Shown here one piece after another: positions 4,223 through 36,317 of a DNA stretch of 36,533 bases (its first letter is position 1; each line of letters starts with the position of its first letter). The translations under genes were made by a program, and so were the position numbers. A model generated the notes under the pieces. It had not been told where the DNA came from. It saw only the letters and a list, made by a program, of their open reading frames with translations, and did no database searches. The stretch spans positions 1 to 36,533 of the forward strand of contig JAHDCV010000040.1 in the NCBI GenBank assembly GCA_020629695.1. Direction: 5' to 3'. This DNA comes from Acidimicrobiales bacterium. Lineage in GTDB: Bacteria > Actinomycetota > Acidimicrobiia > Acidimicrobiales > SZUA-35.

Positions 4223-5343
4223 TGGGGCGCCCGACCGTTCGTGACGACCTCCGAGCGCTCGAGGGGTACCACTCGCCGCAGCTCGATGTGACGGTGCGCC
4301 TCAACACCAACGAAGCACCCTCCGCGCCGCCTGCGGCGTTCGCCGAAGCGGTGGCCGCAGCGGCGACCGGGATCGAGTGGCATCGTTACCCCGACCGTGG
4401 AGCCACCGAGCTCCGTCGCCGGATCGCCGAGCTTCACTGCACGGCGGAGTCGGACAGCGCTGACGGGGTGCACGTCGACGCGTCACAGGTGTTCGTGGCC
4501 AACGGCTCGAACGAGGTCCTCCAGACCGTGCTCCTGACCTTCGCCGGTCCCGGCCGGACGGTCGCCACCTTCGAGCCGACCTACGCCCTCCACCAGCACA
4601 TCACCCGGTTGGTCGGTGCCACGGGTGTCGAGGGTCGGCGGAACGAGGACTTCACGCTCGACGTCGACGAGATCCGCTCGGTCGTCGCCGAGCACCGACC
4701 GAGCGTCACGTTCCTCTGCTCGCCGAACAACCCGACGGGCATGGTCGATGCACCCGACCTCGTCGATGCCGCCCTCGAGGCCGTCGATGCGGTCGGTGGC
4801 CTCCTGGTCGTCGACGAGGCCTACGGCCAGTTCAATCCCACCTCGGCGATCGGTCGGATCGCCGACGACGTGCCGCTGGTCGTGAGCCGGACCTATTCGA
4901 AGACATGGGCGATGGCCGGCGCCCGACTCGGCTACCTGATCGGGCCGGCGTGGTTGATCGCCGAACTCGACAAGGTCGTGCTGCCGTACCACCTCGACGC
5001 GATGAAGCAGGCGGCCGGCGTCGCCGCGCTCGACTTCGTCGCCGACATGGACGAGCGGGTCGCCGCCATCGTCGCCGAACGCAACCGCGTCTCCGAGACG
5101 TTGGTCGACCTCGGTTGCCACGTCTGGCCGTCGGGCTCGAACTTCGTGCTCTTCCGGCCGCCGAACGGGGACGGAGCGGCGGTGTGGCAGGGCCTCGTCG
5201 ATCGATCGGTGCTCGTCCGCAACACCGCCTCCTGGCCGGGTCTCGACGGATGCCTCCGGGTGACGATCGGGACCGCCGACGACAACACTGTCTTCCTGTC
5301 GGCGCTCGCCGACACGCTGGCTGCCTCCGCGGCCGAATCCTGA
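4222..5343 (+). CDS. hisC: Histidinol-phosphate aminotransferase
   Basis: PLP-dependent class I/II aminotransferase converting imidazole acetol phosphate to histidinol phosphate, with glutamate as amino donor. It has 373 residues. SPNNPTG lies at 167-173, Asp198 (VVDEAY) binds the PLP ring nitrogen, and the Schiff-base lysine is Lys227 in SRTYSKTWAMAGAR. A TTG codon one triplet earlier (4219) is in frame, but the ATG at 4222 overlaps the hisD stop and is the better start. It precedes hisB by a 4-nt gap. Confidence 0.96.
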   Translation: MGRPTVRDDLRALEGYHSPQLDVTVRLNTNEAPSAPPAAFAEAVAAAATGIEWHRYPDRGATELRRRIAELHCTAESDSADGVHVDASQVFVANGSNEVLQTVLLTFAGPGRTVATFEPTYALHQHITRLVGATGVEGRRNEDFTLDVDEIRSVVAEHRPSVTFLCSPNNPTGMVDAPDLVDAALEAVDAVGGLLVVDEAYGQFNPTSAIGRIADDVPLVVSRTYSKTWAMAGARLGYLIGPAWLIAELDKVVLPYHLDAMKQAAGVAALDFVADMDERVAAIVAERNRVSETLVDLGCHVWPSGSNFVLFRPPNGDGAAVWQGLVDRSVLVRNTASWPGLDGCLRVTIGTADDNTVFLSALADTLAASAAES

Positions 5344-5347
5344 AAGA

Positions 5348-6007
5348 GTGACCGTGACCGAATCCAGCACGAGCCGCAGCGCCAGCCTCTCCCGGTCGAC
5401 GAAGGAGACCTCGATCTCGATCTCGATCGACCTCGACGGCACCGGTGTCACCGACATCTCGACCGGTCTGCCGTTCTACGACCACATGCTCGACCAGATC
5501 GGCCGTCACGGCTCGTTCGATCTCACCGTGCACGCCGACGGTGATCTCGAGGTCGACAGTCACCACACCGTCGAAGACACCGCGATCCTGCTGGGGGAGG
5601 CCTTCGCCGAGGCGCTCGGGGACAAGAAGGGTGTGCGGCGCTTCGCGAGCGGGCTCTATCCGCTCGACGAGGCGCTCATCGAGGTCGCCCTCGATCTGTC
5701 GGGTCGACCGTTCTTCGTCTACGAGGTCGACATGCCCGAGTCGATTCCGCTCGGCACCCCGCCGTTCGATCCGCAGCTGGCCGAGCACGTCTTCCAGTCA
5801 TTCGCCACCGCCGCCGGTCTCACCCTCCACATGAGGTCGAGGTCGGGCCGCAACAGCCATCACGTGGTCGAGGCCTCGTTCAAGGGCCTCGCCCGTTGTC
5901 TGCGCGATGCCGTGCGCATCGAAGGTGGCGGTGTGCCATCGACCAAGGGCAGCCTCAGCGTCGCCTCGACCGCGTCGGACGACGGTGCCCCGAGCGGGAC
6001 CGCATGA
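5348..6007 (+). CDS. hisB: Imidazoleglycerol-phosphate dehydratase
   Basis: Dehydrates imidazole glycerol phosphate to imidazole acetol phosphate. This is a monofunctional dehydratase (219 residues) without the N-terminal phosphatase of the enterobacterial HisB, as usual in actinobacteria. The metal-binding motifs are present in both halves: SHHTVED at 71-77 and SHHVVEA at 170-176. FYDHMLDQIGRHG lies at 43-55. GTG at 5348 is close behind AAAGAG, and a second in-frame GTG at 5354 has better spacing to it, so the true start may be two codons later. The stop overlaps hisH by ATGA. Confidence 0.96.
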   Translation: MTVTESSTSRSASLSRSTKETSISISIDLDGTGVTDISTGLPFYDHMLDQIGRHGSFDLTVHADGDLEVDSHHTVEDTAILLGEAFAEALGDKKGVRRFASGLYPLDEALIEVALDLSGRPFFVYEVDMPESIPLGTPPFDPQLAEHVFQSFATAAGLTLHMRSRSGRNSHHVVEASFKGLARCLRDAVRIEGGGVPSTKGSLSVASTASDDGAPSGTA

Positions 6008-20825: not shown

Positions 20826-22214
20826 GTGACGATTCGACGAACCTTCGACCTCGTGGTGCTCGGCGGCGGAGCCGGTGGCCTGGCCGCGGCGAGGGAGGCC
20901 CGTCGCCGGGGCGCGTCGGTGGCCCTCGTCAGCGACGGCCCGCTCGGCGGGGACTGCACCTTCACCGGGTGTGTTCCCTCCAAGACCCTGATCGAAGCGG
21001 CGCGGCGTGGCGCCGGACCCACCGACGCCTGGGCCTCGACCCGCCGGGTGGTGGCGCACATCGCTGGATCCGAGTCGGCCGAGGTGCTCCGCTCCGAAGG
21101 GGTCGACGTCGTCGAGGGGCGTGGGGTGCTGGCCGATGCGTCGACCATCGTCGTGGACGACGCGGCGATCACCGCTCGACGGGGGCTCGTGCTCGCACTC
21201 GGCGCGTCCGCTTCAGTGCCGCCGATCCCCGGGTTGCGTGAGGCGGCCTCCGGGCCGGAGGCGCTCGTTCGGACGAACGAGACGTTCTGGGAGCTCGACC
21301 GGCTCCCTGCTCGCCTCGGCCTACTTGGGGCCGGTGCCATCGGATGCGAGCTGGCCCTCGCATGTGCGGCGCTCGGCTCCGAAGTCCACCTGTTCGAATT
21401 GGCCGAGCGGGTGCTGCCACGAGAGGAAGTCGACGTCTCGCCCCTCATCGAGGCGCGGCTGCACTCGGCCGGCGTCGTTTTGCATCTCGGCGCTGGGATC
21501 GAGGCCGTCGAGCCCGTGCCCGGAGGCCTGCGTGTGTCGGGAATCGATGTCGACCGGTTGTTGGTCGCCGCCGGTCGACGTCCCCGTACCGACGGTGTCG
21601 GCCTCGACCAGGTCGGTGTCCGCCTCACCGCAGGCGGGGCCATCGACGTCGGCCCCACACTCGAGACCTCGGTGTCGAAGGTGTACGCCGTCGGCGACGT
21701 GGTCGGCGGACTCCAGTTCACCCATGCGGCCGACGCCATGGGCCGCCTCGCTGCCGGCAACGCGCTGAGCAGCGTCGCTCGGTTCCGGCCGTCCCGGTTC
21801 GATCCGACCACGGTGCCCTGGGTGACGTTCACCGATCCCGAGATCGCCCGGATCGGCGTGACCGAGGCAGAGGCGGCGTCGATCCGGGGTGCGATGGTCG
21901 CCGAGCTCCCCCTCGAGGAACACGATCGGGCCCTGGCTGCGGCATCGACGGACGGGTTCATCCGGATCATCGCCGCGCCCCGCCGTGGGCTCGGCATGAC
22001 CGGAGGGGGGCGGATCGTCGGGGCGACGATCGTCGCCCCCAGGGCCGGCGAGATGATCGCCGAGATCGCCCTGGCGATGCGGCTCGGGGTGTTCACGGGA
22101 CGCCTGGCACAGACGGTGCATCCGTACCCGACCTGGAGCTATGGCATCCAGAAGACCGTCGGGCAGTTCTTCACGACCGTGGAGGGTCGCAGGGCGCGCC
22201 CGCCGCGAGGGTGA
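20826..22214 (+). CDS. Pyridine nucleotide-disulfide oxidoreductase (Lpd/MerA-like)
   Basis: A 462-residue flavoprotein of the dihydrolipoamide dehydrogenase/mercuric reductase group. FAD is bound at GGGAGG (13-18). The redox disulfide is Cys44-Cys49 in GGDCTFTGCVPSK, and the second nucleotide motif is near GAGAIGCELA. The FAD motif VYAVGDVVGG and a dimerisation domain follow, ending HPYPTWSYG, where classical Lpd has a HPTxSE-like stretch. That difference, and the absence of E2 or lipoylation genes, argue against a dedicated Lpd. The electron acceptor is unknown. The start is GTG 20826 with no clear ribosome site. Confidence 0.88.
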   Translation: MTIRRTFDLVVLGGGAGGLAAAREARRRGASVALVSDGPLGGDCTFTGCVPSKTLIEAARRGAGPTDAWASTRRVVAHIAGSESAEVLRSEGVDVVEGRGVLADASTIVVDDAAITARRGLVLALGASASVPPIPGLREAASGPEALVRTNETFWELDRLPARLGLLGAGAIGCELALACAALGSEVHLFELAERVLPREEVDVSPLIEARLHSAGVVLHLGAGIEAVEPVPGGLRVSGIDVDRLLVAAGRRPRTDGVGLDQVGVRLTAGGAIDVGPTLETSVSKVYAVGDVVGGLQFTHAADAMGRLAAGNALSSVARFRPSRFDPTTVPWVTFTDPEIARIGVTEAEAASIRGAMVAELPLEEHDRALAAASTDGFIRIIAAPRRGLGMTGGGRIVGATIVAPRAGEMIAEIALAMRLGVFTGRLAQTVHPYPTWSYGIQKTVGQFFTTVEGRRARPPRG

Positions 22215-22257: not shown

Positions 22258-23001
22258 ATGGATCGTCGATCGGAACGTGGCGCCGGTGCCATCGAGTACG
22301 GCCTGATCATCGCGGTGCTCGCCGCCGTCGTCGTGATCGCGCTCCGGAGCACCGGCGACAACACGGACCAAGAGCTTGAATACACGGCGGCCGTCATCGA
22401 GGGTGAGGTGCTCGACAACGGCACCGCCGGTGCGTCGGGTGGTTTCGGTTCCACGAGCGGCGGCGGCGGGGTCGGTGGTTCGGGTTCGGATGCGTCGCAG
22501 TCGTTCGAGGACGACGACGACCGTTTCTACGTGGTCTACGGCGAGGGTGAAGAGATCGGCATCTGGACCGTGGCGGAGGGGTCGGTCGATCCGTTCCGGG
22601 TCGACCAGCCGACGCTCGCGGCGCGATGGCGGGACACGGGCGCCACGGCACCCGACGGGGAGAAGATCCTCGATCTCAACGGCAACGAACCGGGCGCGAT
22701 CGAGACCGAGCTGCGGGTCGCCCGTGGTGCGGACTACACGTTGTCCTTCCTCGTCTCCGAGAACCACTTCTGCCAGGGGTCGACGGTCAGGGACGGCAAT
22801 GCCAAGACCGGTCGGGTGTTGTGGAACGGCCAGGAGGTCCAGACCTTCTCGGCCGACACCGATTTCGGTGAGTTCGAGGTGGTCACCGCCACCCTCCCCG
22901 CCAGCGGCGAGGACCTCGGAACCCTTCGGATCGAGTCCACCTCGCCGGGGTCGTGCGGGCCGGCGATCGAGTCGGCGAGTGTGCAGGTGAAACTGCGCTG
23001 A
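22258..23001 (+). CDS. Type IVb (Flp-like) prepilin N-terminus fused to a DUF642-like domain
   Basis: A 247-residue protein with two parts. Residues 1-30 are a Flp/TadA-type prepilin leader and helix (ERGAGAIEYGLIIAVLAAVV). With cleavage after Gly8, Glu13 becomes the conserved +5 glutamate and Tyr14 follows, as in G/xxxxEY prepilins. A Gly/Ser-rich hinge (57-80) leads to a domain at about 88-246 with DUF642 features (IWTVAEGSVD, LDLNGNEPGAIETEL, YTLSFLVSENHFC, SPGSCGPAIESASV). DUF642 domains are beta-sandwiches often linked to carbohydrates. The product could be a minor pilin displaying an adhesive tip domain. No tad genes are nearby. The frame is open to 22141, but the ATG at 22258 gives the normal short prepilin leader. 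Confidence 0.82.
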   Translation: MDRRSERGAGAIEYGLIIAVLAAVVVIALRSTGDNTDQELEYTAAVIEGEVLDNGTAGASGGFGSTSGGGGVGGSGSDASQSFEDDDDRFYVVYGEGEEIGIWTVAEGSVDPFRVDQPTLAARWRDTGATAPDGEKILDLNGNEPGAIETELRVARGADYTLSFLVSENHFCQGSTVRDGNAKTGRVLWNGQEVQTFSADTDFGEFEVVTATLPASGEDLGTLRIESTSPGSCGPAIESASVQVKLR

Positions 23002-23069: not shown

Positions 23070-24344
23070 ATGCGCCTCCTGCCCCCGCTGCTCGCTCTGC
23101 TCCTGCTCGCCGCCGCATGTTCGTCCGACGGAGCGCCGGCCTCGTCGGGGCTCGACGTCGAGACCGAGGCGTCGACGACGACCGACGCGGGAGCCGACGA
23201 CGCGACGAGCAGCGTCAATCCGCTGACCGAGGTCGAGACCCCCCACTCGGCGCTGTTCGGCGACCGGAACCACCCCTCGTTCCCGCCCCCGGTCGTGGAC
23301 CCCTCGCTCATCGTGTCGGGAGGGCCGCCGCCCGACGGCATCCCTCCGATCGACGATCCGCAGTTCGTCCCGGTCGCCGAGGCCGACTTCTTCGATGACG
23401 GCGACGAAGCGGTCATCGCCCTGGAGATCGATGGCGAGGCACGGGCGTATCCGATCCGGATCCTCATCTGGCACGAGATCGTGAACGACACCTTCGGCGA
23501 CGTCCCCGTCACGGTCACGTACTGCCCCCTCTGCAACTCGGCCCTGGCCTACGACGGACGGGTCGAGCAGGCCGACGGTTCGTTCGAGACCTTCACCTTC
23601 GGGACCTCGGGATCGCTCTACCAGTCGGCCCTGGTGATGTACGACCGCCAGACGAACTCGTTGTGGGCCCACTTCACCGGCCAGGCCATCGTCGGTCACG
23701 TCGCGGGAACGCGCCTCGATCTGCTTCCCGCTCAGACACTGTCGATCGATCAGTTCGCGGCGCGATACCCCGACGGCCTGGTTCTGACCCAGGACACGGG
23801 GCACGACCGTCCGTACGGATCGAACCCGTACGAGGGCTACGACGAGGAGAACTCCGGACCGATCGGCGGCTTCTTCAACGGTCCGATCGATGAGCGTCTG
23901 GCCTCGAAGGCGAGGATCGTCGGCATCGTCGCCGATGGATCCGGCGGTACCGACGTCGCGGCACCCGCGAGCGCGGCCATCCGGACCGAGACGGTCGAAT
24001 CCGCTGGTGGAGCGCTGGAGGTCCAGGTCGACGGCCGTGCCCTGACCGTCTGGGTCGAGCCGGGACTGGCGTCCGCACTCGAACGATCGGGGGTGGCCGA
24101 CGGGCGCGACGTCGGTGCGACCGGCGTCTTCGTGCCGGTCAGTGGTGAGGGGATCGAGCTGTCGTTCGAGCGGACCGACGACGGGTTCGTCGACGCCGAG
24201 ACCGGATCGATCTGGGACATCACGGGTCGAGCAGTCGCCGGCGAGCTGGCCGGGGACCGACTCGAGCCGATCGTCCACATCGACACCTTCTGGTTCGCCT
24301 GGGCGACCTACCGACCCGACACCGTCCTGCTCGACGGGGAGTGA
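23070..24344 (+). CDS. DUF3179 domain lipoprotein
   Basis: A 424-residue probable lipoprotein. The signal peptide ends LLLAAAC with lipidation Cys17 (Ala rather than Leu at -3, common in GC-rich actinobacteria). A short Thr/Asp-rich linker (33-48) is followed by a DUF3179 domain containing VTVTYCPLCNSALAYDG (Cys152 and Cys155) and FGTSGSLYQSALVMYDR. The paired cysteines could bind metal or form a disulfide. The biochemical role of DUF3179 is unknown to me. The ATG at 23070 starts the signal peptide. It converges on the DUF389 gene with a 16-bp gap in which I see no terminator. Confidence 0.85.
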   Translation: MRLLPPLLALLLLAAACSSDGAPASSGLDVETEASTTTDAGADDATSSVNPLTEVETPHSALFGDRNHPSFPPPVVDPSLIVSGGPPPDGIPPIDDPQFVPVAEADFFDDGDEAVIALEIDGEARAYPIRILIWHEIVNDTFGDVPVTVTYCPLCNSALAYDGRVEQADGSFETFTFGTSGSLYQSALVMYDRQTNSLWAHFTGQAIVGHVAGTRLDLLPAQTLSIDQFAARYPDGLVLTQDTGHDRPYGSNPYEGYDEENSGPIGGFFNGPIDERLASKARIVGIVADGSGGTDVAAPASAAIRTETVESAGGALEVQVDGRALTVWVEPGLASALERSGVADGRDVGATGVFVPVSGEGIELSFERTDDGFVDAETGSIWDITGRAVAGELAGDRLEPIVHIDTFWFAWATYRPDTVLLDGE

Positions 24345-26141: not shown

Positions 26142-26261
26142 TCAGGCGTCGACCTCCGTCGGACGCCGGCGGCGGGCGAGCCCGATGAGGCCGAGTCCGC
26201 CGATCATGAGGATCAAGGCCATCCACATCGCCCGCTGCGTCGAGCTACCGGTGAAGGCCAG
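26142..26261 (-). other. C-terminal LAFTG cell-wall sorting signal (part of the adhesin gene)
   Basis: Encodes the last 39 residues and stop. LAFTG (codons at 26261-26247) is followed by SSTQR, a hydrophobic helix (WMALILMIGGLGLIGLA) and a basic RRRR tail. The LAxTG form is characteristic of class E sortase substrates in high-GC actinobacteria. Confidence 0.9.
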
Positions 26262-29200
26262 CAGATCGGAGGGCACCGCAACGGTCCCGGCGACGGCATC
26301 GCTGTCGTCTGTCAGCGTCGTCTGGAAGGTGGAGCTGCCGATCGTCGCCAGGTTCTCGATCGAGCCACGGGCCGAGGTGGCGACCCTCGCCGTGATCGAG
26401 ACCGTCGTCGACGAATCAGCGGCGAGGTCGCCGTCGAGCACGCACCCGACCGTCTCGCCATCCGTGTTCGTGGTGGCCGAGCACGTCCAACCGTCCCCCT
26501 CGGCCGACACGTAGCTGAGACCGGTTGGCAGCGGATCGTCGAGAACGACGTCGGTGGCGGCCGAGGGCCCGGTGTTGGTGATCACGAACCGGTAGGTCGC
26601 GTTCTCGCCTGCAGTCAGATCGCCGACGAGCTGCTTGTCGAGGGTCAGCTCTGCCAGCGGCACCTCGGTCGGGTCGTCGTCGCTGTTGTTACGGGGGTCT
26701 CGGTCTGCGGTCTCGGTCGACACTGCCGCGGTGTTGGTGACCCCTGGGGCCGCCTCGGCGCCGACGGCGACGAGGAGGTCGATCGTGAATGACGCACTGG
26801 CGTCGAGTGACGCGAGGTCGCAGGTCACGGTCTGGTCGACGGCGACGCAGGTCGCCGGCCCGGTGGCCGACACGAAGGTCAGCCCGGCCGGCAGCTCGTC
26901 GACGACCTGGACGGCCGTGGCGGTCGCCGGGCCGGCGTTGGCCACCTCGAGGACGTAGAGGGCCTCGGAGCCCACGACGAACTCACCCGTGTGCGACTTG
27001 GTGATCGACAGGTCGGCATCGGGTCGGAGCCCGAAGTCGACGTCCAGGTTGGTCTCCCCGGTTCCGATGATGCCGAGCCACGTGCCATCCACGACGAGAT
27101 CGGGATCGCCGGCGATCGCACCGGAGTCCGGGTCGTAGGTGAGGACGTGGTCTGCCGGCACGGTCGCCTCGATGAGGTCGACCCGAACCGGGCCGGCGGG
27201 CAGGCCGTCGACGCCATAGATCCCACCACCCGAGGTGGTTGTGGTCACCACGATGTCGTCGTCGGTCCCGAGCACCCCATCGCCGCCGGCGAGGGTGATC
27301 TGGACGTCGATGCCGTCGATGCCGACCTCGTCGTCGGCCGGGTCCGGGTTGCCCGTGTCGAGCACACCGTCGGCGTCGAGGTCGATCCACACGGTGTCAC
27401 CGATCTCGGCCGAGCCGCGGTACCCGAAGTCGACGTCGTCCCGGTCGGGTGTCGCGGCATCGAGCGTGGCGTCGGCGGTCGAGTCGAGCCCACCGTCGAG
27501 GTCGTAGGTGGCGACCAGGTCGGCCGGCAGGCTCGCCGGGTCGACCGTGGTGCGGTAGTCGCCGTAGGGCAGGTTGGGCACCGACCAGACGCCGTCGGCG
27601 TCGGTCTCGGTCCGGACGAGCACGTCGTCGGCCGTGCCGAAGACACCGTCGACGCCGGCCCACTCCACGATGAGTTCGACGCCGGGGATCCCCGGCTCGG
27701 CGGGTGTGCCGCCGGTGCCGTCGTCGACGGTCTGATCCCCGTCGAGGTCGAGCCAGACGAGGTCGCCGATCGAGCCGACACCGCGGTAGCCGAAGTCGAC
27801 ATCGGTCCGATCGGTGCCGGTCGCGAGCGACACGGTCGAGGTGTGATCGTCGCCGCCGTCGAGGTCGTGGGTCGGCACGACACCGGCCGGGAAGTCCGGA
27901 TCGGCGGTGTCGACCGTGACCTCGAACTGTCCGGCGGGCAGGTTGTCGAACGAGTAGGTCCCGTCGGCCGCCGTCTCGGTCGTGAGGGTCCGGTCGTCGT
28001 CGCCGCCGGGAGCACCGTCGGGGCCGTGCCACACGAGGGTGATGGTGACACCCGGAAGGCCCGGCTCGAGGGTGCCGGTCTCGGCGTCGAACGGTGTGCC
28101 GTCACCGTCGAGGTCCAGCCACAGCTGATCGCCCAGTGAGGCGGTCCCGGCGAAGGAGAAGTCGACGTCCCGCTTGGACTCACCGGCGCCGAGGGTCACC
28201 TCGGCCGTCGGATCGGGTTCGCCGTCAGCGCCACCGGGAGCGGTGTGCTCGACGTCCCACGTCTGATCGACGAGGCCGAGCGGGAAGTCCGGATCGGTCG
28301 TGTCGACCGTCGTCCGGTAGTCACCTGGCGGCAGGTCCTCGAAGAGGTAGAAGCCCGTCGTGGTCGTCGTCTGCGTGGGGAAGGTGACGTCGTCGGCGGT
28401 GCCGAAGACGCCGTCGAAACCGGCCCACGCGAGGTCGACATCGACATCCTGGAGCTCTTGGTCCTGGCCGGCGAACACGCCGTCGTTCGACCGGTCGACG
28501 TCCCAGAACAGCTCGTCGCCGAGTTCGCCTGCGCCGCTGTACGAGAAGTCCGCGTCGACGTACGAGGTGGTCGTCGGGGTCAACACGATGTCGCCTGAGA
28601 TGTGGGCGGTGCCCACGCCGTTGTCGTCGAAGGTCTGGTCCCAGCCGGCCGATCCGCCAGGAAGGGTCGTCGGGTCGATCTCGACTCGATAGGTGCCCAC
28701 CGGCAGATCGCCGAAGGCGTAGTTGCCGCTCGCGTCGGTCACCTGTGCGGTCACGGTGATGTCGTCGCCGCCGCCGGCGACCCCGTCGGGGCCGAAGTAG
28801 TCGTCGGCGGTACCGATGATGCCGTCGTTGCCCGCCGACAGCAGGTTCACGGTGACGCCGGGGATCCCCGGTTCGAGGCCCTTGGTGGTCTCGTCGCCGC
28901 CGGAGGCGTCGACGTCGTACCAGACGGTCGAGCCGAGCGACGCGGTCGACACCGTGATGGTCACGGAGTCGTCGTCGTCTTCGTCGCCGCCGTTGCCGGG
29001 GGTGGAGTCGGGGTCGTACCGGTCGGTGGCGACCACCTCGGCCCGGTTCGTGATGCTGCCGGCGTGATCCAGGATGACCCGGACGACGAGTTCGGCGCTG
29101 GCGCCGTTCGCGAGCGGCGTGGGCAGGGTCCACTCACCGCTTCCGCTGTCGTACGAGCCGTCGGCCGAGACCGTCGACACGTAGATCAGGTCGCCACCGT

Positions 29201-32200
29201 CGAGGATCTCGTCGACGACGGTGTTGATCGCCGCGTCGGGGCCGTCGTTGGTGACGGTGATGCGGTAGTCGACGGTCTGGCCCTGGATGTACGGGCCGGG
29301 GTCGGGCGTGATGATGGCCTTGTCGAGCCGGAGGTCGGCTTCGTAGATGCGGGCGTCGGCGGTGTCGTCGCCACTTGCGTACGGTCCGTCGGCGCTGCCG
29401 GTGGCACCCGTGGCGTCGTCACCGACGGCGGACGCCGTGTTGGTGTGGTCGACGGTGCCACCCACACCCGGAGCGGTCGTGACCGCGGCACCCGGGGTGG
29501 TGTCGAAGCGGATCTCGAATGTGGCGCCTGCGGCGAGGTCGGCGACGTCGGTCCAGTCGAGCTGGAAGCCCGTCGCGGCGGTCCCGGTGATGGTGGGGTC
29601 GGCCAGCGCCACACAGGTCGGCGTGCAGAGCTGGGCCGAGCTGGCCACGTAGCTCCAGTTCACGGGGAGGGTGTCGGTCACGTCGACGTCGAACAGGCCG
29701 GCGCGGGGTGCGGTGTTGCTGACTTCGATGTGCCACTCGAATGCCTGGCCGATGACGGCTTCGTCGAGTTCGGATCCGTCGGCGACGGTCTTGGCGATGG
29801 CCACGACCGGCACGTCGAGGTCGAGCTGGACGACGTCGGCCGTCACCGCTCCGTTGGTGCCGCCGTAGGTCCGCTCGTTCGTCGAGGTGGCGCGGTCGGT
29901 GGAATCGAGGCCGAAGTAGGTCGGCACGTCGGCGGAGTTGTCCACCGAGTCGCTGGCCGACAGGTTGGCCGAGACGTCGAGTTCGGCGGTGTAGGTCACC
30001 GTGATCGAGTCACCGACGGCGAGCGGGCCGGCGAACGACCACGCCATCGCCGGGTCGGCGAGCGTCCACGCATCGCTGATGCTGGCCGCACCGGTGACCG
30101 GGGTGACGTTGATCAGCTCGGGGCCGGGCTGGTCGGTGATGACGATGTCGTGGGCGGGTTCGGTTCCGGTGTTCTGGATCGTCAGCGTGTAGGTGAACGG
30201 TCCGTCGCCGAGCTCGATGTCGCAGGCGTCGTCGTCGGTCGCACCACCGGTGGCGGCGTGGGTGTCGTCACAGCCGGCGAGGGCGCCGGCGCCGAGGTCG
30301 ACGTCCTTGTCGATCGCCAGCTGCGGCTCGGCGATCGTGATGCTCGTCGTGACCGGACCGTTGGTGTAGGCGAAGGTGCCAGGCAGGTCACCCGCACCGG
30401 TCGGGGTGGTGGTCACGGTGTCGACGAGCATCCAGCCGAGTTCGGCGGAGTTCACGAGCGACTCGCCGGCGGCCACGGCGGTACCGTCGGCCGGCAGGCC
30501 CGTCCCGTCATAGGTGGCACCGACGTGGGTCACGTAGTCGATCGTGACCGTGCAGTCACCACCGCTCGCTGCGACGTCACCGAGGAAGAAGGCGACGTCG
30601 GTCGAGCCGTCGGCGTTGGCGGTGGTGAAGGTCAGACCGGTGTCACCGGTGATCGTGCACGCCGACGAACCGACCATGGACGTGGTCGAGTCGAACTCGA
30701 GGCCGTCCGGCACGGTGTCGATGACCGTCATGTCGTAGACCCGGCCGTCCTCGGGCAGGGTCACGTCGACCTGGAAGGTCACGGTCTCACCGATCGTGTA
30801 CGGCCCGGTGTCCGGATCGAGCACCTTGGTGAGCGTGGCGTCGAGGCTGGCGAGCGACGCCACGGTGATGGTCACGGAGTCGTCGTCGTCTTCGTCGCCG
30901 CCGTTGCCGGGGGTGGAGTCGGGGTCGTACCGGTCGGTGGCGACCACCTCGGCCCGGTTCGTGATGCTGCCGGCGTGATCCAGGATGACCCGGACGACGA
31001 GTTCGGCGCTGGCGCCGTTCGCGAGCGGCGTGGGCAGGGTCCACTCACCGCTTCCGCTGTCGTACGAGCCGTCGGCCGAGACCGTCGACACGTAGATCAG
31101 GTCGCCACCGTCGAGGATCTCGTCGACGACGGTGTTGATCGCCGCGTCGGGGCCGTCGTTGGTGACGGTGATGCGGTAGTCGACGGTCTGGCCCTGGATG
31201 TACGGGCCGGGGTCGGGCGTGATGATGGCCTTGTCGAGCCGGAGGTCGGCTTCGTAGATGCGGGCGTCGGCGGTGTCGTCGCCACTTGCGTACGGTCCGT
31301 CGGCGCTGCCGGTGGCACCCGTGGCGTCGTCACCGACGGCGGACGCCGTGTTGGTGTGGTCGACGGTGCCACCCACACCCGGAGCGGTCGTGACCGCGGC
31401 ACCCGGGGTGGTGTCGAAGCGGATCTCGAATGTGGCGCCTGCGGCGAGGTCGGCGACGTCGGTCCAGTCGAGCTGGAAGCCCGTCGCGGCGGTCCCGGTG
31501 ATGGTGGGGTCGGCCAGCGCCACACAGGTCGGCGTGCAGAGCTGGGCCGAGCTGGCCACGTAGCTCCAGTTCACGGGGAGGGTGTCGGTCACGTCGACGT
31601 CGAACAGGCCGGCGCGGGGTGCGGTGTTGCTGACTTCGATGTGCCACTCGAATGCCTGGCCGATGACGGCTTCGTCGAGTTCGGATCCGTCGGCGACGGT
31701 CTTGGCGATGGCCACGACCGGCACGTCGAGGTCGAGCTGGACGACGTCGGCCGTCACCGCTCCGTTGGTGCCGCCGTAGGTCCGCTCGTTCGTCGAGGTG
31801 GCGCGGTCGGTGGAATCGAGGCCGAAGTAGGTCGGCACGTCGGCGGAGTTGTCCACCGAGTCGCTGGCCGACAGGTTGGCCGAGACGTCGAGTTCGGCGG
31901 TGTAGGTCACCGTGATCGAGTCACCGACGGCGAGCGGGCCGGCGAACGACCACGCCATCGCCGGGTCGGCGAGCGTCCACGCATCGCTGATGCTGGCCGC
32001 ACCGGTGACCGGGGTGACGTTGATCAGCTCGGGGCCGGGCTGGTCGGTGATGACGATGTCGTGGGCGGGTTCGGTTCCGGTGTTCTGGATCGTCAGCGTG
32101 TAGGTGAACGGTCCGTCGCCGAGCTCGATGTCGCAGGCGTCGTCGTCGGTCGCACCACCGGTGGCGGCGTGGGTGTCGTCACAGCCGGCGAGGGCGCCGG

Positions 32201-35200
32201 CGCCGAGGTCGACGTCCTTGTCGATCGCCAGCTGCGGCTCGGCGATCGTGATGCTCGTCGTGACCGGACCGTCGGTGTCGTCGAACGCACCCGGGAGGTC
32301 GCCGCTGCTGCTCGGCGTCGTGGTGACCGTGTCGGTCAACATCCAGCCCAGGTCGGCGGAGTTGGTGAGGGCGTCACCCGCGTCGACGACGACGCCGTCG
32401 GCCGGCGTGCCGGTGCCGTTGTACGTGCTGTCGACATGGGTCGAGTAGTCGATCGTGACAGTGCAGTCACCACCGACGGCCACGACGTCACCGAGGAAGA
32501 AGTCGACGGTCGTCGACCCGTCGGCGTTTGCCGTGGTGAAGGTCAGACCGGTGTCACCGGTGATCGAGCACTCGGCCGACGGCGTGATCGCCGTGGTGGC
32601 ATCGAAGACGAGCCCGTCGGGAACCACGTCGGTCGCCGTGAGATCGAAGACCCGGCCGTCCTGCGGGAGCGTCACGTCGACCTGGTAGGTCACGGTCTCA
32701 CCGATGGTGTACGGCCCGGTGTCCGGATCGAGCGCCTTGGTGATCGTGGCCGCCGGGGTGGTGACGGTGTCGGTCGTGGTGGCCGAGTACGTGGTGCGCT
32801 CACCCGTCGGGGTGCCGGCCATCGAAGTGGCGGTGACGGTCACGCTGTTGGTGATCGAGCCACCGAGCGTGACGGGGTCGTTGACCGTCACCTGATACGT
32901 CAGGCTGGTCGAGCCGCCGACGTCCAGCGAGAGGAGCGACGGTGTGGTCGTGCCGTCCCAGGTGATCGTGCGGCCGCCGACGTCCCAGACGCCACCGTTC
33001 GGGATCGGGAGTACGGGGGTGAAGCGATCGGGAATCGTGTCGACGACCACGAGGTCGTGGGCGACCGAGCCACGGTTCGACGAATGGTCGGGGTTCGTGA
33101 TGGTCAGCGTGTAGTCGAGGGTCTGGCCGGGGGCGACGATGTCGTCGGCGTCGTTCTCGTCCTTGGCGATCTGCGGGTTCGGTTCGACGATCCGCACGTC
33201 GACGTTCGCGCCGTTCTGTGTGATGTTCGAGCCGCTGGCCGTCGCCTTGAACACGAACTGGCCGTTGTTCCGGAGCAGGGTGTTCGCGGTGTTGCCGCCG
33301 ATGTCCTCGACGACGGCGGTGAACGTGATGGTCACGGTGTCGTCGCCGGAGCCAGCGGGGTTCGTATAGGTCGCGGGGAACTCCACCTCGAGCGGATTCC
33401 CACTGTCGAAGACGAAGCCGTTGGCCGGCACGGCGAAGGTGCCGAGGTCGTTGGCGACGCTGGCGGTGATGGTGCCGCTCACGACGGCGAGGCCGGCCGG
33501 CAGATCGTCACGGAAGGCGGCGTCGAAGACCGTCACACCGGCGGGCACGGTGACGGTCGTGGTGTAGACGATCTGCTCGCCGATCGTCGCTTCTTCCACA
33601 CCGGTTCCCGGCGTGCCGAGCTGGCTGTTGCCGGACTCGCCGACCGCCGACTGCTGCACCTTCGTGATCGTCGCACCGGGCGTCGTCACCGTCTCCTGTG
33701 CGGTGGGTCCGGTGGTGGTGACCGTGCCACCGTCGTTGGTGGGGTAGGTGTAGTCGCCGATGTCGGCAGTGTTGACGTAGCTGCGGCCGGCCGAGACCGT
33801 GGTGGGCGCGGTGATGGTGTACGTCCGCGTGGTGCTGGCGCCGGCGTCGAGCGCGAAATCGGGCCAGGTGATGACATCACCCGAACACGTGCCGCTGTCA
33901 GACGGGCCGGCCGTGATGTCGGCACAGGTGAACGGCGACGGCAGCGCGTCGGTCAGGTCGATGTTCTCGACCCGGCCGTAGCCGGCGTTGGTCCCGGCAT
34001 CGGTGATGTTCGCGATCGTCAGCGTGTAGTCGATGGTGTCACCGGCGACGAACTGGCTGGTCGGCGTCGCCTTGGCGAGCGTCAGTTCCGGCGCGATGAC
34101 CTGGAAATTCGACTGGTCACGAAGCGAGACGGCTGTGCCGGCCGTGTTCTGCGTCGTCAGCTTCCACAGGTTGGCCTGGTCGAGGGAGGCGGCACTGGTG
34201 TCCGGTGAGGCGACCACGTCGGCCAGGATCCGGACCGAGAAGGTCCGGTCGGATGTCGAGATCGGGAGGTAGCGGGCACCGTCGATCACGGTTGTGCCGA
34301 TCTCCCAGTAGAACTCGGTGCTGCCGGCGCCGGCCGCCGAGCCGTCGCTCAGGTTGAACGGACCGGCGATGTCGGTGACGTCGTTGCCGGGGTTCGTCGT
34401 CGCCGAGACGAGCTGGAGGGTGTCCGGCAGGAAGTCACTGGCGACGGCGTTGCGCAGCGTCAGGTTCGCCGGGACGATGAACTCGAGGTCGAAACAGACC
34501 TGGTCACCCGGTCGATACGAGAACGGCGCATCGGCGACCTGATCGGCCTCGACGTACGTCGCCGTGGCGCAGTCGAGTGTGGCGCCGGGCGCCGCGGGCA
34601 CCGCGACGGTCTTCGAGATACTCGGGTTGCCGGCGGTCTGGCTTGCCGACGACGTGTCGGGGTCGGGCTGGCCGTCCGCCTCGTCGGCGGGGATGCCGGC
34701 GATCAGCAGATCGTCCGCCGTCATGGAGACGGTGTTGGTGAAACCGTCGGCGGTCACGACGGGTGCGTCGGACAGGAAGTTCTCCTGGTACGACTCCCGG
34801 ACCTTCGACGGGAAGGTGATGACGTGGGTGTCCGAGGCGCCGAGCGAGACGGCGTCGTCCCAGAAGATGGTGTAGGAGCCGTCGGCGTTCTCGGTGACCG
34901 ACGTGTACGGCTGCGACGGGTTCATGCCGTTCGGATCACACTCGGCCTGCTGGTCGGCGGCGTTCTCGTAGTTGACCGGTCCCATCGGGCACTGGCCGTC
35001 GGGCAGGGTGTCGGTCACGTCCACGTTGGTGGCCGTCCGGTACTCGGAGGTCGAGATGGTGAGTGTCCAGGTCGCGGCCGCGAGCTGGGTGATGTCGGCG
35101 TTGTCGACCGACTTGATGATCCGGATGTCCTCGGCGATCACCTGCTCGTAGGCGTCACTCGTGACGGGGTTGGCCGCCCCGGAGGCGAATGGACCGGTGT

Positions 35201-36317
35201 AGCTGCCGGAGGCCAGGGCGTAGTTGCGGAGAAGCTGCTCGTCGGTCGTCTCGGGGCCCGAGTTGTTGTCGAGGTTGGCGATCTGGCCGCCCGTGGTGTC
35301 GGGGGTCGCCCCCGACCAGGTCTCGGTGTTCTCCCGGATCGGGATACCCGCGGCGTACTGGATCGTGAACGTCTGGCCGGGGGTCAGGTTGCCGATGTCC
35401 CAGACGACGTGGGTGTAGACGGCGCTCGGGAGCGGACCGGCGCCGTCGGGGTCGACGGTGATGGTCTCGACGGTGGTCGGCGCGGGGCAGTCGGCGGTGA
35501 TGTCGGCCGTCGAGACATCCAGGCGCGGTGCGCCGCTGTATTCGACGTTGTTGCCGGTGAAGGTCGGGGCGTCGGTCGTGTTGTCGACCGTGCCGCAGCC
35601 GAGGAACTCGAGGCCGGCCGGCAGCCAGTCCTCGACGGTGATCGAGTTGGTGGCGTTGGCCGGGTTGTTCTCGACGGTGAGCGTGTACACGGTGGCGTGG
35701 TCGTGCACACCACGCATGAGCTCGTCCTCGGGGCTCGGCTCGGACTTCTCGAGCAGGATCGCGGTCACCTCGGTCGAGCTCGAGCCGGTACCGGAGCCGG
35801 TGTTCGGGTTGAGGGCGAACGAGTCGGGCAGCGGAACGACACGCGGATCATCGCTCGTGTACGCCGTTGCGGAGACGGCGAAGTCGGCGCCGACGGGCAG
35901 CGTGGAACCGTTCGTGGTCACGTCGAACTCGATCGTGATGGGTGCGGAGGGCTGCGAGTCGTTGACGTTGACGAAGTACAACGTCGTCTCGCCGGCGCCC
36001 GGCCCGGACTCGATGGTCGGCGTGCCGGCGGTCGATGACCCGGGGGTGTAGCTCACCCCGGCCGGCAGGACGACCACGATGCCGGTGTTGTAGCCGGGTG
36101 TCGCCGTGCTGTTGTTGGCGGTCACCGAGATGGTGCCGCCCTCACCGACGAGGACTTCGTCCGGAGCGGTGACGCTCACGTCGAGGTTCGGTGCGGCGGC
36201 CGCCGGCGAGCCGGTGACCGCCAGGGTCGCCCCGCTCAGGAGCGAAGCGAGGAGCGTGAGGGCGATGAACGGGCGCAATGCACGGTTGGAGCGCAGGCGC
36301 GATGTGAGGGTCCGCAT
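26142..36317 (-). CDS. Giant secreted, cell-wall-anchored DUF11/SdrD-B adhesin
   Basis: A 3391-residue surface protein. The Sec signal peptide is 1-42 (RPFIALTLLASLL, cleavage near SPAAAA). About 15 DUF11-like Ig-fold domains follow to about 2455, each opening with an xxIxK-type strand and containing a xDxLPxG loop. Five SdrD B-like domains follow (about 2457-3096). They begin SLGSTVWYDVDASGG, ELGDELFWDVD, SLGDQLWLDLD, SIGDLVWLDLD and EIGDTVWIDLD, and have Asp-rich, probably Ca-binding loops. Two more DUF11 domains lead to a sorting signal: LAFTG (3353-3357), a hydrophobic helix and RRRR. A class E-type sortase encoded elsewhere would anchor it. Residues 1349-1818 and 1986-2455 are identical copies. 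The ATG at 36317 has GGATGAGG just upstream. Confidence 0.93.
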   Translation of the reverse strand: MRTLTSRLRSNRALRPFIALTLLASLLSGATLAVTGSPAAAAPNLDVSVTAPDEVLVGEGGTISVTANNSTATPGYNTGIVVVLPAGVSYTPGSSTAGTPTIESGPGAGETTLYFVNVNDSQPSAPITIEFDVTTNGSTLPVGADFAVSATAYTSDDPRVVPLPDSFALNPNTGSGTGSSSTEVTAILLEKSEPSPEDELMRGVHDHATVYTLTVENNPANATNSITVEDWLPAGLEFLGCGTVDNTTDAPTFTGNNVEYSGAPRLDVSTADITADCPAPTTVETITVDPDGAGPLPSAVYTHVVWDIGNLTPGQTFTIQYAAGIPIRENTETWSGATPDTTGGQIANLDNNSGPETTDEQLLRNYALASGSYTGPFASGAANPVTSDAYEQVIAEDIRIIKSVDNADITQLAAATWTLTISTSEYRTATNVDVTDTLPDGQCPMGPVNYENAADQQAECDPNGMNPSQPYTSVTENADGSYTIFWDDAVSLGASDTHVITFPSKVRESYQENFLSDAPVVTADGFTNTVSMTADDLLIAGIPADEADGQPDPDTSSASQTAGNPSISKTVAVPAAPGATLDCATATYVEADQVADAPFSYRPGDQVCFDLEFIVPANLTLRNAVASDFLPDTLQLVSATTNPGNDVTDIAGPFNLSDGSAAGAGSTEFYWEIGTTVIDGARYLPISTSDRTFSVRILADVVASPDTSAASLDQANLWKLTTQNTAGTAVSLRDQSNFQVIAPELTLAKATPTSQFVAGDTIDYTLTIANITDAGTNAGYGRVENIDLTDALPSPFTCADITAGPSDSGTCSGDVITWPDFALDAGASTTRTYTITAPTTVSAGRSYVNTADIGDYTYPTNDGGTVTTTGPTAQETVTTPGATITKVQQSAVGESGNSQLGTPGTGVEEATIGEQIVYTTTVTVPAGVTVFDAAFRDDLPAGLAVVSGTITASVANDLGTFAVPANGFVFDSGNPLEVEFPATYTNPAGSGDDTVTITFTAVVEDIGGNTANTLLRNNGQFVFKATASGSNITQNGANVDVRIVEPNPQIAKDENDADDIVAPGQTLDYTLTITNPDHSSNRGSVAHDLVVVDTIPDRFTPVLPIPNGGVWDVGGRTITWDGTTTPSLLSLDVGGSTSLTYQVTVNDPVTLGGSITNSVTVTATSMAGTPTGERTTYSATTTDTVTTPAATITKALDPDTGPYTIGETVTYQVDVTLPQDGRVFDLTATDVVPDGLVFDATTAITPSAECSITGDTGLTFTTANADGSTTVDFFLGDVVAVGGDCTVTIDYSTHVDSTYNGTGTPADGVVVDAGDALTNSADLGWMLTDTVTTTPSSSGDLPGAFDDTDGPVTTSITIAEPQLAIDKDVDLGAGALAGCDDTHAATGGATDDDACDIELGDGPFTYTLTIQNTGTEPAHDIVITDQPGPELINVTPVTGAASISDAWTLADPAMAWSFAGPLAVGDSITVTYTAELDVSANLSASDSVDNSADVPTYFGLDSTDRATSTNERTYGGTNGAVTADVVQLDLDVPVVAIAKTVADGSELDEAVIGQAFEWHIEVSNTAPRAGLFDVDVTDTLPVNWSYVASSAQLCTPTCVALADPTITGTAATGFQLDWTDVADLAAGATFEIRFDTTPGAAVTTAPGVGGTVDHTNTASAVGDDATGATGSADGPYASGDDTADARIYEADLRLDKAIITPDPGPYIQGQTVDYRITVTNDGPDAAINTVVDEILDGGDLIYVSTVSADGSYDSGSGEWTLPTPLANGASAELVVRVILDHAGSITNRAEVVATDRYDPDSTPGNGGDEDDDDSVTITVASLASLDATLTKVLDPDTGPYTIGETVTFQVDVTLPEDGRVYDMTVIDTVPDGLEFDSTTSMVGSSACTITGDTGLTFTTANADGSTDVAFFLGDVAASGGDCTVTIDYVTHVGATYDGTGLPADGTAVAAGESLVNSAELGWMLVDTVTTTPTGAGDLPGTFAYTNGPVTTSITIAEPQLAIDKDVDLGAGALAGCDDTHAATGGATDDDACDIELGDGPFTYTLTIQNTGTEPAHDIVITDQPGPELINVTPVTGAASISDAWTLADPAMAWSFAGPLAVGDSITVTYTAELDVSANLSASDSVDNSADVPTYFGLDSTDRATSTNERTYGGTNGAVTADVVQLDLDVPVVAIAKTVADGSELDEAVIGQAFEWHIEVSNTAPRAGLFDVDVTDTLPVNWSYVASSAQLCTPTCVALADPTITGTAATGFQLDWTDVADLAAGATFEIRFDTTPGAAVTTAPGVGGTVDHTNTASAVGDDATGATGSADGPYASGDDTADARIYEADLRLDKAIITPDPGPYIQGQTVDYRITVTNDGPDAAINTVVDEILDGGDLIYVSTVSADGSYDSGSGEWTLPTPLANGASAELVVRVILDHAGSITNRAEVVATDRYDPDSTPGNGGDEDDDDSVTITVSTASLGSTVWYDVDASGGDETTKGLEPGIPGVTVNLLSAGNDGIIGTADDYFGPDGVAGGGDDITVTAQVTDASGNYAFGDLPVGTYRVEIDPTTLPGGSAGWDQTFDDNGVGTAHISGDIVLTPTTTSYVDADFSYSGAGELGDELFWDVDRSNDGVFAGQDQELQDVDVDLAWAGFDGVFGTADDVTFPTQTTTTTGFYLFEDLPPGDYRTTVDTTDPDFPLGLVDQTWDVEHTAPGGADGEPDPTAEVTLGAGESKRDVDFSFAGTASLGDQLWLDLDGDGTPFDAETGTLEPGLPGVTITLVWHGPDGAPGGDDDRTLTTETAADGTYSFDNLPAGQFEVTVDTADPDFPAGVVPTHDLDGGDDHTSTVSLATGTDRTDVDFGYRGVGSIGDLVWLDLDGDQTVDDGTGGTPAEPGIPGVELIVEWAGVDGVFGTADDVLVRTETDADGVWSVPNLPYGDYRTTVDPASLPADLVATYDLDGGLDSTADATLDAATPDRDDVDFGYRGSAEIGDTVWIDLDADGVLDTGNPDPADDEVGIDGIDVQITLAGGDGVLGTDDDIVVTTTTSGGGIYGVDGLPAGPVRVDLIEATVPADHVLTYDPDSGAIAGDPDLVVDGTWLGIIGTGETNLDVDFGLRPDADLSITKSHTGEFVVGSEALYVLEVANAGPATATAVQVVDELPAGLTFVSATGPATCVAVDQTVTCDLASLDASASFTIDLLVAVGAEAAPGVTNTAAVSTETADRDPRNNSDDDPTEVPLAELTLDKQLVGDLTAGENATYRFVITNTGPSAATDVVLDDPLPTGLSYVSAEGDGWTCSATTNTDGETVGCVLDGDLAADSSTTVSITARVATSARGSIENLATIGSSTFQTTLTDDSDAVAGTVAVPSDLLAFTGSSTQRAMWMALILMIGGLGLIGLARRRRPTEVDA
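28954..30361. repeat. 1408-bp direct repeat, copy B (in the adhesin gene)
   Basis: Identical, in all stretches compared, to 30865-32272 at an offset of 1911 bp (637 codons, frame preserved). It encodes residues about 1986-2455: three DUF11-like domains starting after the conserved GPVTTSITIAEPQ and ending in the DDDDSVTITV stretch. Divergence is abrupt at both edges. Confidence 0.9.
30362..30864. repeat. 503-bp diverged part of the adhesin repeat unit
   Basis: Lies between the two identical blocks and encodes one DUF11-like domain (ATLTKVLDPDTGPYTIGETV start). Its counterpart just beyond 32273 (ATITKALDPDTGPYTIGETV start) is roughly 70 percent identical in protein by eye. The full repeat unit is thus four domains, of which only three are homogenised. 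Confidence 0.75.
30865..32272. repeat. 1408-bp direct repeat, copy A (in the adhesin gene)
   Basis: The partner of 28954-30361 and the N-terminal-side copy in the protein (residues about 1349-1818). Silent positions also match, so the copies are recent or maintained by gene conversion. Confidence 0.9.

What the first reader, a model, noticed from the sequence alone, without database searches (positions are those of the whole stretch)
22258..23001. Flp-type prepilin leader fused to a DUF642-like domain
The first 30 residues satisfy the G/xxxxEY prepilin rule (Gly8 cleavage, Glu at +5, Tyr at +6) and the hydrophobic helix is intact. After a Gly/Ser hinge comes a domain with clear DUF642 hallmarks. 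Flp pilins are normally 50-80 residues with no globular domain, so this would be a pilin subunit that displays a beta-sandwich, perhaps glycan-binding, module. I know of no described system built this way.
Basis: partly seen in the sequence, partly recalled or inferred. Interest (0 to 1): 0.65.

Follow-up and report, generated by a model that had tools for sequence, protein, structure and literature searches.

The report
Flp pilin carrying a sugar-binding-type module
An actinobacterial genome encodes small pilus-subunit starts joined to a domain shaped like known sugar-binding modules, which suggests that these bacteria decorate their thinnest pili (Tad/Flp pili) with interchangeable glycan-binding heads, a trick so far described only for other pilin types.

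Summary
The 247-aa ORF at 22258-23001 has a Flp prepilin leader (Pfam Flp_Fap, E 2.9e-7; G-1, E+5, Y+6), a Gly/Ser linker, and a DUF642 domain (Pfam 2.7e-4, below cut-off; NCBIfam choice-of-anchor C 7e-12). It is under purifying selection (dN/dS 0.22, even over all parts). The full two-part architecture recurs in nine genes of five genomes from three families of one order, three of them in this genome. The same genome encodes a Tad locus (flp, CpaB, TadZ-like, TadA, TadB, TadC), a prepilin peptidase and TadE/TadG minor-pilin operons; one such operon holds another Flp leader fused to a ricin-B-like lectin. In the same class the DUF642 module is also joined to a canonical N-methyl type IV pilin. 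The fold matches CBM35/36/6 modules, from a weak model. Best reading: a modular Flp minor pilin that displays a glycan-binding module on a Tad pilus. This extends the known 'modular pilin' idea (S. sanguinis PilB/PilC; KilN/TadG tips) to Flp pilins. Incorporation into a filament and glycan binding are inferred, not shown. New variant of a known kind.

The parts
22258..22281 (+). Prepilin leader M1-G8 (MDRRSERG), predicted cut after Gly8
   Evidence: Sequence; E6 R7 G8 A9 invariant in nine homologues
22282..22362 (+). Flp-type N-terminal helix (residues 9-35), E+5 Y+6
   Evidence: Pfam Flp_Fap residues 4-35, E 2.9e-7; hydrophobicity
22363..22503 (+). Linker (residues 36-82), Gly/Ser-rich in its second half
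   Evidence: 13 Gly and 7 Ser of 47 residues; dN/dS 0.24
22504..22998 (+). DUF642 / choice-of-anchor C domain (residues 83-247), CBM-like jelly roll
   Evidence: TIGR04362 E 7e-12; DUF642 E 2.7e-4; fold matches CBM35/36/6 from a low-confidence model
20826..22214 (+). Upstream neighbour, pyridine nucleotide-disulphide oxidoreductase; syntenic in the genus-mate, probably unrelated in function
   Evidence: Pfam, synteny
23070..24344 (+). Downstream neighbour, DUF3179 protein; probably unrelated in function
   Evidence: Pfam, synteny

Best explanation
The gene encodes a modular Flp-type minor pilin. Shown by sequence: an Flp prepilin leader and helix, a flexible linker, and a DUF642/choice-of-anchor C domain in one selected protein. 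Inferred: the prepilin is inserted into the membrane and cut after Gly8 by the genome's A24 peptidase; its helix packs into the Tad pilus (at the tip, or sparsely along the shaft), driven by the TadA ATPase; and the linker lets the CBM-like DUF642 domain stand off the filament and bind a polysaccharide or glycoprotein. Several paralogues and other Flp-lectin genes would give the pilus interchangeable binding specificities.
For: Domain hits. Two paralogues in the same genome and an orthologue under purifying selection. Nine genes in five genomes of three families. Tad locus, peptidase, and TadE/TadG operons in the same genome. An Flp leader + ricin-B-like protein sits inside a TadG-TadE-TadE operon. 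TadE fused to an F5/8C galactose-binding domain lies about 7 kb from a tandem pair of Flp-DUF642 genes in G305. The same DUF642 module is joined to a canonical N_methyl pilin in G793. CBM-like fold.
Against: The gene is an orphan: it is not linked to tad genes here, and its neighbours differ between genomes outside the genus. One paralogue has Gln instead of Glu at +5. The structure model is weak (pLDDT 53). No sugar-binding residues could be assigned. No evidence of expression or filament incorporation.
Confidence: 0.55

Rival explanations
1. The Flp-type leader serves only as a membrane anchor: processed (or not) by the prepilin peptidase, the protein stays in the cytoplasmic membrane and the linker carries a glycan-binding domain into the cell wall. 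It never joins a filament, much as archaeal sugar-binding proteins use class III signal peptides.
For: Orphan gene not linked to tad genes; long linker; the domain family is named for its varied anchors and matches all members.
Against: Invariant ERGA leader motif and Flp_Fap match go beyond what a simple anchor needs. Other Flp-leader fusions sit in TadE/TadG operons. The module is also grafted onto a canonical pilin elsewhere.
Confidence: 0.25
2. The module binds the cell's own wall polysaccharide and acts as a brake or tether of the Tad pilus base in this presumably single-membrane bacterium, not as an adhesin for foreign surfaces.
For: The genome is of an actinobacterial group and encodes giant surface proteins ending in LAFTG, a membrane helix and an Arg-rich tail as in sortase-anchored proteins; CBM-like fold.
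Against: Several divergent paralogues and different modules (DUF642, ricin-B-like, CBM-like) fit varied targets better than one fixed self-target.
Confidence: 0.1
3. Ordinary Sec-secreted or type II membrane DUF642 protein; the Flp resemblance is a chance similarity of a hydrophobic N-terminus.
For: Stand-alone DUF642 proteins with ordinary signal peptides exist in the same order (G1017).
Against: Eight of nine members match Flp_Fap independently; ERGA invariant in sequences 26-80% identical to the window protein; no AxA-type site after the helix, where Gly33 is invariant.
Confidence: 0.05

Closest known systems
Modular type IV pilins PilB (vWA) and PilC (lectin) of Streptococcus sanguinis
   Same: Pilin N-terminus with a grafted binding module not specific to pilus biology, used for adhesion (PMC8179133, PMC10191384)
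   Different: Those carry the N-methyl class III signal IPR012902; the published survey was limited to IPR012902 and the paper never mentions Flp. Here the graft is on an Flp helix without a pilin globular domain.
KilL/M/N tips of Myxococcus and TadE/F/G tips of Tad pili
   Same: Tad system, minor pilins with modular C-terminal domains forming variable tips (PMC12075869)
   Different: The modular parts there are KilL/M/N or TadE/F/G minor pilins; the Flp members there (KilK, KilO; KilO 59 aa) are described as adapters without such a module.
Flp/Fap pilins (Flp1, Caulobacter PilA)
   Same: Leader, cut site, E+5/Y+6, hydrophobic helix
   Different: Canonical ones are about 60 aa (also in this genome); here 247 aa with a globular domain.
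DUF642 / choice-of-anchor C proteins
   Same: Same domain, all nine members match TIGR04362
   Different: Relatives in the order have Sec signal peptides or large multidomain contexts; here the anchor is an Flp pilin helix.

Membership tests
Flp/Fap pilin (PF04964) | Leader ending in Gly, E+5 (Y+6), hydrophobic helix, Flp_Fap profile match | tested here: met
   E 2.9e-7, slightly below cut-off; 33.1 bits, over the cut-off; 8 of 9 members
Flp/Fap pilin (PF04964) | Short protein of about 50-80 aa without globular domain | tested here: not met
   247 aa with a DUF642 domain; so not filed as an ordinary Flp major pilin
Flp/Fap pilin (PF04964) | Assembled into a filament by Tad machinery | not testable with these tools
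   Machinery present in genome; assembly needs experiment
DUF642 / choice-of-anchor C (PF04862, TIGR04362) | Profile match over the domain | tested here: met
   TIGR04362 E 7e-12 over res 82-241 (45.9 bits; curated cut-off 120 not reached), PF04862 2.7e-4; paralogue P0003 PF04862 4.7e-9, over the cut-off
[quoted passage not shown]
Modular type IV pilin | N_methyl / IPR012902 signal | tested here: not met
   Flp_Fap and weak Class_IIIsignal instead; only G793's separate protein has N_methyl
Tad system in the genome | TadA, TadB, TadC, CpaB/RcpC, TadZ, Flp, prepilin peptidase, TadE/F/G | tested here: met
   C110 locus, C117 peptidase, C51/C18/C94 minor pilins
Carbohydrate-binding module (CBM35/36/6 fold) | Jelly-roll fold | tested here: inconclusive
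   Z 10.6, rmsd 2.3 over 105 residues to CBM35, but model pLDDT only 53
Carbohydrate-binding module (CBM35/36/6 fold) | Measured sugar binding | not testable with these tools
   Needs a glycan array

The most novel reading that the evidence does not exclude
Tad pili of these actinobacteria carry a swappable set of Flp-based lectin subunits (DUF642, ricin-B-like, other CBM-like modules), so that an Flp subunit, until now seen as a bare helix, is a general display platform with binding specificity set by which modular Flp is built in.
Probability: 0.35. Interest if true: 0.72.

Novelty: new variant of a known kind. Interest (0 to 1): 0.55.

Why it matters
Tad/Flp pilins are thought of as the minimal pilin, a single helix with no head. 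Flp subunits with grafted binding modules would explain how Tad pili of single-membrane bacteria gain specific adhesion, would extend the modular-pilin principle to type IVc pili, and would offer a simple natural scaffold for displaying protein modules on the thinnest pili.

Tried and rejected
Sequence search of PDB with the single protein and with a DUF642-domain profile gave no significant DUF642 relative. AlphaFold on the full protein with two sequences failed (pLDDT 39); the domain alone gave a weak model (pLDDT 53). A search for conserved operon partners failed: neighbours are housekeeping or unrelated genes and differ outside the genus. Considered and rejected: spurious ORF (dN/dS 0.22); an upstream start at 22141 (overlaps the preceding gene; the orthologue supports 22258). 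Papers on DUF642 with pilin: none in the held library. The large genome searches scored only six candidates per genome, so absence elsewhere is soft.

Full report
What is there. The ORF at 22258-23001 encodes 247 residues. Residues 1-35 are an Flp-type prepilin leader and helix (Pfam Flp_Fap E 2.9e-7), residues 36-82 a linker that is Gly/Ser-rich in its second half, and residues 83-247 a DUF642 domain (Pfam E 2.7e-4, below the curated cut-off). The bacterial subfamily model TIGR04362 (choice-of-anchor C) matches the same part at 7e-12. Comparison with the syntenic orthologue in a genus-mate (JAHDBV010000001.1, an Acidimicrobiales metagenome-assembled genome) gives dN/dS 0.22, with little difference between leader+helix, linker and domain.

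It is a family. The same genome holds two more genes of the same build (C65, C102; 39 and 36% identity). The genus-mate holds two. The order-level search adds a tandem pair in G305, one gene in G064 and, with a different Pro/Thr-rich linker, one in G203. That makes nine genes, five genomes, three families. In the leader, E6 R7 G8 A9 are invariant over sequences only 26-80% identical to the window protein; eight of nine match Flp_Fap and nine of nine match choice-of-anchor C. Paralogue P0003 has Gln at +5. Searches of the family, order, class and phylum (about 400 genomes each for the last three) found no other full copy, but those large searches scored only six candidates per genome.

Machinery. 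Contig C110 of the same genome carries canonical 60-aa Flp genes, RcpC/CpaB, a ParA-like TadZ candidate, TadA, a TadB with a VWA domain and a TadC. A single A24 prepilin peptidase is on C117. TadE-like and TadG-like genes occur on C51, C18 and C94. A strong type IV/II-type ATPase match, with a second beside it, is on C75, so a second pilus type is probably present too.

Related grafts. On C51 an Flp leader is joined to a ricin-B-like domain (weak Pfam match, E 0.0015) between a TadG-like and two TadE-like genes, all on one strand; the genus-mate has the counterpart. On C18 an Flp-like leader carries a Thr/Pro-rich tail ahead of TadE genes. In the genus-mate an Flp leader is joined to a domain without a Pfam match that by eye resembles a CBM. 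In G954 an Flp leader is joined via a Thr-rich linker to another unknown domain. In G305 a TadE protein ends in an F5/8C galactose-binding domain. In G793, same class, DUF642 follows a canonical N_methyl pilin, with both parts over the Pfam cut-off. The repeated use of one module on different pilin scaffolds is the strongest argument that the fusion works as a pilin graft rather than a chance anchor.

Fold. The domain model is weak (pLDDT 53). Even so the best structural matches are almost all carbohydrate-binding modules (CBM35, CBM36, CBM6; Z 10.6, rmsd 2.3 over 105 residues; Foldseek E 5e-5). This supports, but does not show, sugar binding.

Mechanism. Shown: gene reality, two-part build, recurrence, machinery in the genome. 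Inferred: cleavage after Gly8, filament entry through the helix, display of the domain on the linker, glycan binding. The chief rival is that the protein stays in the membrane as a tethered surface lectin; the orphan position of the gene keeps this open.

Known background. Modular pilins with grafted modules are established for N-methyl pilins (PMC8179133; its survey used IPR012902 and does not mention Flp; review PMC10191384). [quoted passage not shown] I found no paper on Flp pilins with grafted domains in the held library, which lacks most subscription journals. So: new variant of a known kind.

Noticed in passing
window 26142-36317 (-): Giant 3391-aa surface protein with DUF11 and SdrD_B repeats ending in LAFTG, a membrane helix and an Arg-rich tail (sortase-type sorting signal); contains a 300-nt repeat at 28947 and 30858 (99% identical, 1911 apart).
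   Followed up: partly
L098 5616-11546 (-): In the genus-mate a 1977-aa SdrD_B/DUF11 protein, also ending LAFTG plus membrane helix, sits between the Flp-DUF642 gene and the DUF3179 gene, where the window has no gene.
   Followed up: partly
L131 about 5333-5950 (-) (G000:C51): Flp leader fused to a ricin-B-like lectin domain inside a TadG-TadE-TadE operon; counterpart in L135 from about 2949 (+).
   Followed up: partly
L130 13762 to about 18900 (+) (G000:C18): Flp-like leader with Thr/Pro-rich mucin-like tail, followed by TadE- and TadG-like genes and a second TadE pair.
   Followed up: no
L023 5914-7935 (-): TadB-like platform protein fused to a von Willebrand factor A domain in the Tad locus.
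   Followed up: no
L186 (G793:C104, gene about 38954-39800, -): Canonical N_methyl type IV pilin joined to a DUF642 domain.
   Followed up: partly
L025/L125 (G000:C35) and L122 (G064:C27): Flp leader with a conserved tail of about 75 aa containing WRAAW...TR..W(I/V)ADRD motifs, in genomes of two families; function unknown.
   Followed up: no
L068 (G061:C90): 536-aa protein with an N-terminal hydrophobic segment resembling PilX-type minor pilins (by eye, no Pfam match) and a C-terminal DUF642 domain.
   Followed up: no
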